Origin: Amphirosellinia nigrospora
Lineage: Eukaryota > Ascomycota > Sordariomycetes > Xylariales > Xylariaceae
Reading direction: 5' to 3'
Assembly (NCBI GenBank): GCA_004123355.1
Contig: SCHM01000002.1
Location: 496,001-560,000 of the forward strand
Length of the DNA: 64,000 bases
Shown one piece after another: positions 40,621-52,591 of the stretch (positions are counted from its first letter, which is position 1; each line of letters opens with the position of its first letter). The translations under genes were made by a program, and so were the position numbers. The notes under the pieces are model-generated. The model ran no database searches and had not been told where the DNA came from. It saw only the letters and a list, made by a program, of their open reading frames with translations.

Positions 40621-41912
40621 ATGTTCTGCACCTTGAAACATAACAGTCTCTCTGACGAGTCGTATACGTTTGAGACGACGACACCGCCCTTCTCTAGAAA
40701 GCGGGAGGGGAGATTAGCAAAGATCGCCTGCACCAACTGTCGGATAAGCAAGGTAAATAAATCTCTACTGTGACTCGTATGAACTAGTCGACTAAATGTG
40801 CTGTCCTCCTAGTTGAAATGCTCTGGCGAGCCGAATGGTTGCCAGCGATGCCTGGCCAAGAAGACGGATTGCCGCTATCCCAGCCCTCCGAGGGGAAATA
40901 GTCATAAGAAATCACAATCGCAAGCACGAGCACGAGCGGCACCAGCACCTACACCGCCAGAGACCCCTCAATTCCAACCCATCACAAAACCCGAGCCAGC
41001 ACCCATGGACACCACAGTCGATGACGAGTTCATGACGGTTATATCAAATCAGGACACGACATTCAACAATACGTTGGAAGATTTGGACTTGAGTATCGGT
41101 GGCTTTGAGGTGTCCGACTTCACCACGCCCGAGAGTATACCCGGGTTGCTTCCAGACGCAGAGTACATGGACCCCTCAGATGCGATGAGGCCATGGCATC
41201 AACCATTTACTTTTACGCCCGATGAGATCAAATCACCTTGGAATAGCACACCGGAACGTGAAGACGCTATTTTCAGTACGGACAGCAAAACATCCACCGT
41301 TGCGTCATCCCCAAATACGTGCGACTCAAGTTGCTCTTGCTTCTCTCAGGCCGTTAGCACCTATGAGGCCATAGAGGTAGCCGTTTGGGGGCAAAACGAG
41401 CTGTGGAGGAACGCTGACGATATGCTACGGTATCAGAAAAAAGCACTGATCGAATGCGAGGAGCTTCTGGAGTGCCGGAGGTGTACTGCACAGTCCGCCT
41501 ACACCATGCTCCTCTTATCCATGTGCCGGCGGATACTGACAACCCTGACGGATCTATGCGTGGGCCCTCGTGGGGGGATGCGGATACATTCACGAACCTG
41601 GGCCACGGCGCCGAGGAGAGGAAGCGGCGAAAGCCTTCAGACGAGGGGGACAGCGGAGACGAGAGCCGCAATCGTGGATATGGCATCAGCATACGGAACA
41701 GACAGCTGGATGACGACGACGAGTACCTCGTGCTCCAGAGTCTCCTGACGGCACGTGTTGCGCGATTAGGACGCCTCCTTACCAATCTTGACAAAGTCGT
41801 CGGCGAGCAAAATTGGCCCGCCCACAAGGCTATAATCCGGGAACTACAGACCCGGCTTACCGAGAGTTCATTTGTCGTGGAAAAACAACAACGGAGACCC
41901 TGGACTGGATAG
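40621..41912 (+). CDS. Zn2Cys6 transcription factor, AflR-like layout, one frame break
   Basis: Fungal binuclear-cluster regulator. The DNA-binding domain is C-x2-C-x6-C-x6-C-x2-C-x6-C, read across a 60-nt intron at 40753-40812: ACTNCRISK joins LKCSGEPNGCQRCLAKKTDC. A Pro/Ser/Thr-rich acidic middle follows, then a C-terminal helical region (ALIECEELLECRRCTAQSAYTMLLLSM ... YLVLQSLLTARVARLGRLLTNL), as seen in AflR-type pathway regulators. The frame shifts once near 41560-41575 in a GGG/CCC context; downstream GPSWGDADTF continues to the stop at 41912. Start chosen at ATG 40621 after CACC. It is the nearest regulator to the diterpene genes, 2.8 kb upstream of the GGPP synthase and on the same strand, so it may control them; that link is inference. 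About 405 residues. Confidence 0.82.
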
Positions 41913-44750
41913 ATTCCGTATAGACCTAGAAGGCTACCTAGCACCATAGACGAGACACGCATAGACACATACCCCTCTAGAAGCTACTAGACAGCTATCT
42001 AGAAACGAGGCCGCAAAGCTAATGATGAACGATATAGAGATCTTCAAAACTGGCCCATGATAGCTCATGATAGTGCTCTCGAATGACTGTTCCGCATCAT
42101 GATTATGGTGATTATGGTGGTCTGGCGTGCGTGCATGTTTGTTGAGCGACGGAGAATTCCGTCTGCTGACCATGACGGGGTAGCATCCCAGGTAGCATCC
42201 CGCCTGTAGTGTGGTGTAATTTAGGAGCTGAGAGCCCACTACCGCCGATCGCTATCACCTACCGTCGCCTCGACTTTGGTCGTGTCCGTCTCACGCACGC
42301 CACTTGGGTCAACCCAATCGAACCGCAGCATTTTCGTTCGTTCCCGGATTTGGATTTCTTTCTGAGGTAATCAATCTGCTGGGTCGGGTCAGTAGTCGGA
42401 TACTCCGCACAACACTCGCACTACTACTACTACCACCACAGTAGTGTAGTATACAGTAGTTTGTTATCGCATCCTACCCACAGGCCGGCCTGGGGCCTCA
42501 GTCCGATCGCTTACTCACGCAGTCGCTCACTATAGCGAGGCTAATTTTAGCTAATCGAGCCCAACAAACCCAAACGCGAGTCTAGGCGAGGGGATGGGAC
42601 GGCCACCCTTCCCTTGGAAACGATTTATTTCCCTAAATTGGACCGAATATTGTGGCCGAAAGGTTTAAGTTTCAACGCCCTGGCCCAAGTCGTAGTGTGT
42701 AATGTGTTCGCCCGCCACGCATCTGATGTCAGCCTTAAATTAAGCATTTGACCTCATCGACTGCGATTTCGTAATGCCGCCCGACTAGTGTAGTCTGATG
42801 CTTATGGACAAATAGCTTTTCTGGGGGTTCGCATTGTATACTACGGTACGTGTGTACGACATGAAACCGTTCATCCTTGCAACGCTCACCCATCAGCTCA
42901 TCTCATGATATCGCCCCTAGTGTTAGGCTTAGGGAACATACTTACAGTTAGTTACCCCTACGCTTCTGGGTTTAGGCCAACTGATGGGTGAGACAATTGG
43001 TCGGATCCGAGATACCACCAAATGCCGATTCCGAGACCAGTGTTCATACCGCGATAGGTAATTAGGCTAGATAGCCATAAGAACAATAGCCTACTGTCGA
43101 TTGTCATGAGCAGTATAGTAAGAGGCTGCTGGTCTCGAAGCCAGCATGGAATCCTCTTTAGTGGTCATGGCGTCATTCGCTAGAGGCTTGTGGGAGTTCA
43201 TCATGCAAAACGATAAACGACAATGAATTGAATATTCGGGAATTAGCATGACATCGAAGCGGGCAGGAAATAGCGTCCTGCAACTGTGAAGGAGTCCTGT
43301 GTGATAGCGCCATCATTAATATTGAACAACAATCCTCGGTGTCCTCATATGTTCGCCCGGCTCGCCCTACAAACACCCATGTCGGACTTTCACTTTGGGG
43401 TAAGCAAACAACTACTGGATATGTACCTATGCTGGTTACGAGTATTCGGATAAGAACCTTGGAAGTGCGGTCTCACCGTAATGCCATGTTGCCCATACTT
43501 ACAGCACACTTCTCTAAATGATTCATGACTCCTCTATAGACACATGATGCCACTACAAGTATGTAGTAGTTCGATGCTTGTTTTTACTGAACCGGGGCCA
43601 AAATCGGGTTCGCCTCAATTATCTAACCTGGTACATCTAGCGCAGTGGGTAGTACCGTATTATGCCAAGAAAAGCCAAGAACGCGTCGGACCTGATTCCT
43701 TGCCATAAAAGTTCCTGATTTAATGGGGTTAAATCTTCTGGAACCGCCGTCGCTGGTCTCTCGTATAATTTTTCCCGGTTGGGCACAAGCGAGATGCTGT
43801 AGTCTAGGCAGACAATTAAAGTCGCCTATTTGTGAGGAATGAAGGCTGGGAACAGGTAAGATCACGGCACCGATTGGAATATGGGGAAATCGTGCCTATC
43901 AACACACCCCCAAGGTATACAACTGTCCAATGCACTAACACTTGTTTGATTGTTGTCTAAGTCAATCGTGCTGACTTGCCGCAGGACTCTGATACTGCCG
44001 TACGAGCTACCGGCAATTCAACTGTTACAACATACACTACTTGAACCCTGGACTGCAGGTACACTTACACTACTATTGTTTCCGTTTCAAATTGTGTAGA
44101 TAATAATAGCAACGAGGATAAGTCAGCAACTGGAGCCGGCTCCCACTTAATTTGGAAGGGCCGAACATGGGGACTAGATTTGGAATATCCGATTCAACTT
44201 CTCCAGCTAAGCGGATCTTACCCCCATATCAGCGCTACCTACTGAATACTGGGTAGCCATAGCACTATTGTAAAGGATGGGATAGGGGCAAAATCCAGGG
44301 CTAATACAGCTCATTTACACCTCTGGCGACTTGCCTCGTCATTAGCTCCCTAGGTAAGAGCACTAGGGATGGAACGTTCCTAAAGTCGAAGCCACGATTT
44401 GTCAAGCAAAGCCACGATAGGTTGTAGAGACAGGGAATAGTATCTCTATTTAGAAAATTACTACAGGCATCAGTCTCTGTTGATCATACACTAGCTGCAC
44501 AGGTAAGCAGCGGGTTCCTATTGCAGCTTTCCGAGGTATTGGCATGTAGAAACTTGATACTTGTAGTTATCACATGCCACATGCCCTCACCTTCTTAACA
44601 AGCTTTATCGTTGCTCTTCGCATAATCAACTAAACTTCCGATTTCTTATTCTCCTCATAAACCCACCCCATGAACTAAATCTTACTTGTGGAGGTTCAGT
44701 CTTATTCACTACATAGACTCCCGTTATCGTTGATCATCCAAACCATCAAA
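41913..44750. other. Intergenic between regulator and GGPP synthase
   Basis: 2.8 kb without a recognised gene. A CTA/CAC-type microsatellite lies near 42415-42440. Some short frames (43173-43376, 43623-43865, both minus) show no family features. It includes the GGPP synthase promoter. Confidence 0.4.
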
Positions 44751-52500: not shown

Positions 52501-52591
52501 GATGTTCCTCGACCAGGTCGTCCTATTTGATCAGATCTATGTCATTAAGGATATCTCAAGTCACCACATTGTGCAGGAAAATGGCAAATAG
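49585..52591 (+). CDS. cps/ks: Bifunctional diterpene cyclase, CPS/KS type (ent-kaurene synthase like), three frame breaks
   Basis: Two-domain terpene synthase of about 950 residues, the normal fungal CPS/KS size. Exons: 49585-50390, 50445-50575, 50622-50908, 50965-52591. The class II site is ADVDDTAKT, with the DxDD motif at 50639-50650, which protonates GGPP to a copalyl diphosphate. The class I site has DEFME at 51710-51724 and the second metal motif NDLGSIRRDQDE at 52256-52291, which ionise the intermediate. GLGAMSVAAYDTAWVAMV is the family N-terminus. Three one-base breaks: CCC at 49752-49754, about 51377-51384, and C4 at 51611-51614; each appears to lack or move one base, after which the expected blocks resume. 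An Ala/Asn/Gly/Ser-rich linker occurs near 51800-51860. Product is probably ent-kaurene by neighbourhood; other labdane-related products are possible. Confidence 0.92.

What the first reader, a model, noticed from the sequence alone, without database searches (positions are those of the whole stretch)
40621..52591. Compact diterpene cluster: regulator, GGPP synthase, P450-4-like oxidase and CPS/KS cyclase
The sequence shows a GGPP synthase (DDIQD), a CPS/KS with both class II and class I motifs, and an ent-kaurene-oxidase-like P450 within 8 kb, with an AflR-like Zn2Cys6 gene upstream. Known fungal gibberellin clusters contain these three enzymes plus three more P450s and often a desaturase. 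None of the latter occur in the 12 kb on either side. The inferred product is an oxidised ent-kaurane-type or related diterpene, not a gibberellin, which makes the cluster potentially new.
Basis: partly seen in the sequence, partly recalled or inferred. Interest (0 to 1): 0.8.

Follow-up and report, generated by a model that had tools for sequence, protein, structure and literature searches.

The report
Small fungal diterpene gene cluster
This is a real four-gene fungal cluster for making an oxidised diterpene, but its ring-forming enzyme resembles those of phyllocladane, aphidicolin and pimaradiene makers rather than the gibberellin type, so it is a new example of a known kind of cluster.

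Summary
I found no second P450 and no desaturase relative beside them. The "ent-kaurane" reading is not supported: in 57 catalytic-site columns the cyclase is nearest Phomopsis amygdali_b (42/57), whose group includes aphidicolanol and pimaradiene enzymes. The best gibberellin-group row compared over all 57 columns scores 32/57. The separation rests mainly on one of the three stretches. The genome holds three more such cyclases, each with a relative of the window's P450 within 20 kb. One, at C4:5.60 Mb, is of the gibberellin group and has its own GGPPS-like gene and five P450 genes. A cyclase with one GGPPS and one P450 is already tabulated for P. amygdali_b and M. oryzae_a. Every cluster gene has an apparent frame break, but so do 6 of 10 chaperonin genes at a similar rate, so assembly error is likelier than decay. 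Most likely product: an oxidised diterpene made through normal or syn copalyl diphosphate; not shown. New member of a known kind.

The parts
40622..41912 (+). Zn2Cys6 transcription factor, probable pathway regulator; one intron after CRISK; one apparent frame break in the 3' half
   Evidence: Six-cysteine pattern read; Pfam PF00172 E 1e-7; frames
44751..45945 (+). GGPP synthase (DDIQD, DDYKN); one apparent frame break near the 3' end
   Evidence: PF00348 E 1.1e-68, best solved chain E 3.5e-98, genome search
47199..48986 (-). Cytochrome P450, several introns, heme exon FGQGKTACPGRFFA at 47202-47636; one probable frame break near 48080
   Evidence: PF00067 on two pieces; relatives within 20 kb of all three other di-TPS genes
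48987..49584 (.). 598-bp shared intergenic region between the divergently transcribed P450 and cyclase; holds CGG/CCG triplets of the kind Zn2Cys6 proteins bind (recalled; binding not tested)
   Evidence: Sequence; of the CGG/CCG dyads and TCG-N5 patterns scanned, none occurs in all three promoter regions
49585..52591 (+). Bifunctional diterpene cyclase (CPS/KS family), HVGFE-type; three apparent frame breaks (about 49755, 51380, 51615)
   Evidence: Motifs, PDB class II match E 3.3e-76 and 2.1e-23, Pfam Terpene_syn_C_2 sub-threshold E 0.0026, classification
50639..50653 (+). Class II acid motif DVDDT
51710..51724 (+). Class I metal-binding motif DEFME (DEXXE)
   Evidence: matches the fungal DEXXE site in PMC4617483 Table 1
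52256..52282 (+). Second class I metal-binding motif NDLGSIRRD
   Evidence: the three other di-TPS of this genome carry NDYGSxxR at this place

Best explanation
A small fungal biosynthetic cluster for an oxidised labdane-related diterpene. GGPP synthase makes GGPP. The class II domain of the bifunctional cyclase (DVDD) protonates it to a copalyl diphosphate, most likely the normal (or syn) stereoisomer. The class I domain (DEFME, NDLGS) then ionises this and forms a tri- or tetracyclic skeleton of the phyllocladane/aphidicolane/pimarane sort. The neighbouring P450 oxidises the skeleton, and the Zn2Cys6 protein switches the genes on. Shown here: the genes, their families, the catalytic motifs and the grouping of the cyclase by its catalytic sites. 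Inferred: stereochemistry, skeleton, position of oxidation and the regulator's role.
For: Gene content and motifs. Catalytic-site comparison with PMC4617483 Table 1: among 46 rows P. amygdali_b 42/57, P. teres_a and P. betae_a 38/57, M. oryzae_a 37/57; the 11 other rows give at most 32/56 over the three stretches. Against 21 selected rows (11 of the NHIG group that holds the gibberellin enzymes, 10 of the HVGFE group) the best NHIG row has 32/57, and in 1984 of 2000 column bootstraps the nearest row is of the HVGFE group, P. amygdali_b in 1437. Published products in that group: phyllocladan-16alpha-ol and CPP in P. amygdali, aphidicolan-16beta-ol via syn-CPP in Phoma betae (passages), pimara-8(9),15-diene from normal CPP in Magnaporthe (equating DiTPS2 with M. 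oryzae_a is my inference). Relatives of the P450 lie within 20 kb of the three other cyclases: 4 of 25 matches, 0.07 expected, P about 6e-7 if matches were placed at random. A Zn2Cys6 protein controls such a cluster in A. nidulans. The class II base residues read LHS/PSA, as in 8v0f and 9q3i, where the plant ent-CPP synthase 3pya has LHS/PNV.
Against: The grouping rests on 57 aligned residues, not a full-length tree, and mainly on the first stretch: on stretches 2 and 3 alone the NHIG-group row C. purpurea_a (24/37) ties with P. amygdali_b (14+10). A. nidulans_c, also of the HVGFE group, makes an ent-pimaradiene if it is AN1594 (identity inferred), so ent stereochemistry is not excluded. LHS/PNV is described for plant and bacterial gibberellin enzymes and is not required for ent-CPP. 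Which of the two P. amygdali enzymes is row _b is not stated in what I read; one of them is listed as a CPP synthase only. All four genes carry apparent frame breaks in this assembly. No expression data.
Confidence: 0.58

Rival explanations
1. One reading: the cyclase makes ent-kaurene and the P450 oxidises it to ent-kaurenoic acid or another ent-kaurane.
For: Same gene families as the first steps of gibberellin synthesis; the P450's heme exon is 45% identical to the P450 in this genome's gibberellin-group cyclase cluster; fungal ent-kaurene oxidases are CYP503 (passage); catalytic stretches 2 and 3 alone do not separate it from C. purpurea_a.
Against: Over all three stretches it groups away from the 11 NHIG-group rows compared (best 32/57 against 42/57). 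The genome has another cyclase with the gibberellin-group sites. The P450 has many relatives of like identity, so it is not diagnostic.
Confidence: 0.18
2. The cyclase stops at copalyl diphosphate, its class I site being unproductive, so the cluster makes a labdane-type product or feeds another enzyme.
For: One of the two P. amygdali enzymes is listed as a CPP synthase. The C5 cyclase of this genome has a degenerate class II acid motif (VNSTT) but keeps the class I site, somewhat like the Arthrinium pair that works as two enzymes.
Against: DEFME and NDLGS sites are intact in the window's enzyme.
Confidence: 0.15
3. A decayed cluster: the frame breaks are real mutations and nothing is made.
For: Six apparent breaks in about 6.75 kb of coding sequence (intron lengths estimated).
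Against: Ten breaks in 14.2 kb of matched chaperonin (Cpn60/TCP-1) sequence, overlaps counted twice, 6 of 10 genes affected: a like rate, p = 0.6. A prenyltransferase gene on C1 also changes frame twice (coordinates). Catalytic motifs are intact. The shifts are mostly of one kind, 5 of 6 in the cluster and 8 of 10 in the chaperonins, as one would expect of a systematic sequencing error.
Confidence: 0.08
4. A gibberellin pathway split over several loci, of which this is one.
For: Four cyclase loci; a CmcJ/NvfI-type oxidoreductase, which I recall (not from a call) as the family of the GA4 desaturase, lies about 8 kb from the C1 cyclase; the C4:5.60 Mb cluster has a gibberellin-group cyclase and five P450 genes.
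Against: The fungal gibberellin genes described in what I read lie together (passages); the window's cyclase is not of the gibberellin group. The CmcJ family has 36 matching stretches in this genome.
Confidence: 0.03

Closest known systems
Phomopsis (Diaporthe) amygdali di-TPS clusters (row P. amygdali_b; phyllocladan-16alpha-ol synthase / CPP synthase enzymes)
   Same: Closest catalytic sites (42/57); same gene set of one GGPPS, one P450 and one di-TPS (Table 2 of PMC4617483)
   Different: No Zn2Cys6 neighbour is mentioned in what I read; product of row _b not resolved; the class I stretch differs (10/20 residues shared)
Aphidicolin cluster of Phoma betae (aphidicolan-16beta-ol synthase)
   Same: Catalytic sites 38/57, of which 16/20 in the class I stretch; GGPPS present
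   Different: Two P450s listed there; no full-length comparison made here
Magnaporthe oryzae DiTPS2 cluster (pimara-8(9),15-diene)
   Same: GGPPS, P450, transcription factor; sites 37/57 if M. oryzae_a is DiTPS2 (inferred)
   Different: Further oxidase/P450 genes, a dehydrogenase and a transporter are listed, though Table 2 of PMC4617483 counts one P450
PbcR/AN1594 ent-pimara-8(14),15-diene cluster of Aspergillus nidulans
   Same: Zn2Cys6 regulator, GGPPS, bifunctional cyclase, P450 (passages)
   Different: Also HMG-CoA reductase, dehydrogenase and others; A. nidulans rows are not among the nine nearest
Gibberellin clusters of Fusarium and Sphaceloma
   Same: GGPPS, CPS/KS, P450
   Different: No second P450 and no desaturase relative beside it; cyclase sites of the other group

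Membership tests
Fungal bifunctional diterpene synthase (CPS/KS family) | DXDD class II acid motif | tested here: met
   EADVDDTAK, motif at 50639
Fungal bifunctional diterpene synthase (CPS/KS family) | DEXXE plus second metal-binding motif of the class I domain | tested here: met
   DEFME at 51710 and NDLGSIRRD at 52256
Fungal bifunctional diterpene synthase (CPS/KS family) | One open protein of about 950 aa | tested here: inconclusive
   Gene span fits, but three apparent frame breaks in this assembly; breaks of like rate in chaperonin genes
Gibberellin-group fungal di-TPS (ent-kaurene synthases of Fusarium and others) | NHIGVE-type catalytic stretch and grouping with those rows | tested here: not met
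   HVGFEII; best of 11 such rows 32/57; 16 of 2000 bootstraps. The group also holds M. oryzae_b, so it is not ent-kaurene alone
Gibberellin-type ent-CPP synthase | LHS and PNV base motifs (described for plant and bacterial enzymes) | tested here: inconclusive
   LHS present, PNV replaced by PSA; not required in all ent-CPP synthases
Gibberellin gene cluster | P450-1, P450-2, (P450-3, desaturase) next to CPS/KS | tested here: not met
   One P450 only in the window and one weak P450 stretch in the 100 kb of flank fetched; no CmcJ/NvfI match in the window
Fungal ent-kaurene oxidase (P450-4, CYP503) | P450 with at least 40% identity to CYP503 members | not testable with these tools
   Pfam P450 only; I found no CYP503 sequence to compare with
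P. amygdali_b / P. teres_a-type GGPPS-P450-di-TPS cluster | Nearest catalytic sites and GGPPS + P450 beside the di-TPS | tested here: met
   42/57 and 38/57; gene content as in Table 2 and the HGT passage
Zn2Cys6 regulator | Six-cysteine binuclear cluster | tested here: met
AflR-like regulator | AflR C-terminal domain | tested here: inconclusive
   No such Pfam match in the two frame pieces; the gene is frame-broken

The most novel reading that the evidence does not exclude
The four cyclase loci of this fungus form a network. The window's enzyme (or another intact one) supplies a normal or syn copalyl diphosphate that the C5 enzyme, whose class II acid motif is degenerate but whose class I site is kept, turns into a second skeleton. 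Related P450s within 20 kb of every cyclase then give a family of products from one ancestral cyclase-P450 pair.
Probability: 0.08. Interest if true: 0.5.

Novelty: new member of a known kind. Interest (0 to 1): 0.27.

Why it matters
It adds one more small, self-contained route to an oxidised diterpene and corrects the expected skeleton. It also shows that a P450 and a bifunctional cyclase beside a GGPP synthase do not by themselves mean ent-kaurane chemistry. The genome as a whole, with four cyclase loci each having a related P450 within 20 kb, is a tidy case for studying how such pairs duplicate and diverge. Four labdane clusters in one genome are already reported for Hypoxylon rickii.

Tried and rejected
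Gibberellin cluster in the window: rejected. Pseudogene cluster: not favoured, because frame breaks are about as common in chaperonin genes. Shared regulator sites: CGG/CCG dyads and TCG-N5 patterns were scanned in three promoter regions and none occurs in all three. PDB search of the class I piece gave no terpene synthase. The CYP503 literature search gave no usable sequence. Pfam on the longest N-terminal cyclase piece gave nothing. Structure prediction of the class I piece was not available. Which of the two P. amygdali enzymes is row _b could not be settled. P450 counts are lower bounds (92 of 327 candidates scored): a weak P450 stretch near C4:608.8 kb was seen only by tblastn.
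Full report
OBSERVATION. The window lies at C4:496001-560000 of a 48.1 Mb fungal genome in 11 contigs (that it is a fungus is read from its genes). The four genes are at the stated place. The regulator starts at 40622; its two exons carry a complete Zn2Cys6 pattern and match Pfam Zn_clus at E 1e-7. The GGPP synthase (44751-45945) has DDIQD and DDYKN sites and matches PF00348 at E 1.1e-68. The P450 (47199-48986, minus strand) matches PF00067 in two pieces. The cyclase (49585-52591) has DVDD, DEFME and NDLGS motifs. 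Its class II part matches the solved copalyl diphosphate synthases 8v0f and 9q3i (fungal, as I recall) at E 3.3e-76 and 8.2e-74. The P450 and cyclase are transcribed away from each other from a shared 598-bp region. The flanking genes examined are unrelated: a beta-mannosidase and a beta-lactamase-like hydrolase on the left, two orphan ORFs and a fringe-like glycosyltransferase on the right.

FRAME BREAKS. Every cluster gene appears to change frame without an intron: regulator 1, GGPPS 1, P450 1 (probable), cyclase 3. At each of the three places in the cyclase at least one paralogue of the same genome (C1 or C5) reads on in one frame. To see whether this means decay, I looked at the Cpn60/TCP-1 genes. 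Six of ten show such breaks, 10 breaks in 14.2 kb of matched coding sequence, overlaps counted twice, against 6 in about 6.75 kb here (p = 0.6; intron lengths in the cluster were estimated). Eight of those 10 and 5 of these 6 are the same shift. A prenyltransferase gene on C1 also changes frame twice within 720 bases (coordinates). The breaks are therefore best read as assembly error. I read pieces apart and mended nothing.

WHAT KIND OF CYCLASE. PMC4617483 (Fischer 2015; read: outline, Results parts 1-2 of 3, Discussion part 1 of 2, passages) tabulates three catalytic stretches for 57 fungal di-TPS. The window's stretches are RSQLAAWDVSTTEHVGFEII, PFFEADVDDTAKTISSL and LLSMLTYQVDEFMEAVAAPA. 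Among 46 rows they are nearest P. amygdali_b (42/57), then P. teres_a and P. betae_a (38/57), then M. oryzae_a (37/57). The other 11 rows, most of them gapped, shifted or of irregular length, were scored later; none over all three stretches exceeds 32/56. Against 11 rows of the NHIG group, which holds the Fusarium and Sphaceloma gibberellin enzymes and also M. oryzae_b, and 10 selected HVGFE-type rows, with one gap column to align the two groups, the best NHIG row gives 32/57. The nearest row is of the HVGFE group in 1984 of 2000 column bootstraps. The same test puts the C4:5.60 Mb paralogue with the NHIG group in 1993 of 2000. A result against a strong claim: on stretches 2 and 3 alone the NHIG-group row C. 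purpurea_a, whose first stretch is not printed, reaches 24/37, as does P. amygdali_b (14+10), so the separation rests mainly on the first stretch. Products published for the HVGFE group: phyllocladan-16alpha-ol and CPP in P. amygdali, aphidicolan-16beta-ol via syn-CPP in Phoma betae (PMC4004862, passages), pimara-8(9),15-diene from normal CPP in Magnaporthe (PMC10512213, outline and Results), and, against a simple rule, ent-pimara-8(14),15-diene in A. nidulans (PMC3323652, passages). The residues that hold the catalytic base in Arabidopsis ent-CPP synthase (LHS, PNV; PMC11795633, passages) read LHS and PSA here, as in 8v0f and 9q3i.

THE REST OF THE GENOME. Searches with two cyclase pieces found three further di-TPS genes. 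C1:2083.6-2086.5 kb has all motifs and is nearest the two Epichloe rows. C5:1471.0-1473.9 kb has DEYMEA and NDYGS, but the class II acid motif is degenerate (VNSTT). C4:5600.8-5604.0 kb is of the NHIG group. The last one sits with a GGPPS-like gene, five P450 genes, an aldehyde dehydrogenase, a methyltransferase and a bHLH protein. A weak class I match at C5:8348 kb was not followed. The window P450's heme exon has 25 other matches at E<=1e-5. Four lie within 20 kb of the other three cyclases: C4:5582.1 kb, C5:1468.1 kb, C1:2069.4 kb and C1:2079.1 kb (0.07 expected at random, P about 6e-7). This P450-cyclase pairing is therefore general here, not a mark of ent-kaurene oxidation. A CmcJ/NvfI relative lies at C1:2074.4-2075.5 kb; no match of that family lies in the window or near C4:5.60 Mb.

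MECHANISM. GGPP synthase, then class II and class I cyclisation by one protein, then oxidation by the P450, under a Zn2Cys6 regulator. Families and motifs are shown; stereochemistry, skeleton and regulation are inferred.

KNOWN OR NEW. Table 2 of PMC4617483 lists one GGPPS and one P450 beside P. amygdali_b and beside M. oryzae_a, and a passage notes that for P. teres_a and P. [quoted passage not shown] Four labdane clusters in one genome are reported for Hypoxylon rickii (PMC8403587, passages). A partner enzyme with a mutated class II aspartate is known from Arthrinium (PMC10999977, first of two parts). The fungal gibberellin gene arrangement is from passages of PMC7758035. PMC10796067 (sections 6 and 16 and passages) was read only to test the organism. 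The organism of the window was not identified, so whether this very cluster is in print cannot be said. The cluster is a new member of a known kind with an unknown product.

Noticed in passing
C4:5575-5604 kb (L043-L045): A second, larger diterpene cluster: gibberellin-group di-TPS, GGPPS-like gene, five P450 genes (one 45% like the window's at the heme exon), aldehyde dehydrogenase, methyltransferase, bHLH protein.
   Followed up: partly
C1:2069-2087 kb: Third di-TPS locus with two relatives of the window's P450 and a CmcJ/NvfI-type oxidoreductase.
   Followed up: partly
C5:1468-1474 kb (L021, L025): Fourth di-TPS whose class II acid motif is degenerate (VNSTT) while the class I motifs are intact, with a related P450 about 2.5 kb away.
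   Followed up: partly
Seen in the window's cluster genes, in chaperonin genes and in a C1 prenyltransferase gene: Frequent single-step frame changes, about 0.7 per kb of matched chaperonin sequence, probably assembly error; gene predictions on this assembly should be treated with care.
   Followed up: yes
54762-55484 (-) and 57139-57909 (-): Two small ORFs with similar ends (GVEVAQS-GHPFMN), hydrophobic stretches and no Pfam match: a pair of related orphan genes.
   Followed up: no
C4:4487-4526 kb: A GGPPS-like gene with several P450 genes but no match to the two cyclase pieces; another terpenoid cluster, perhaps an indole diterpene.
   Followed up: no
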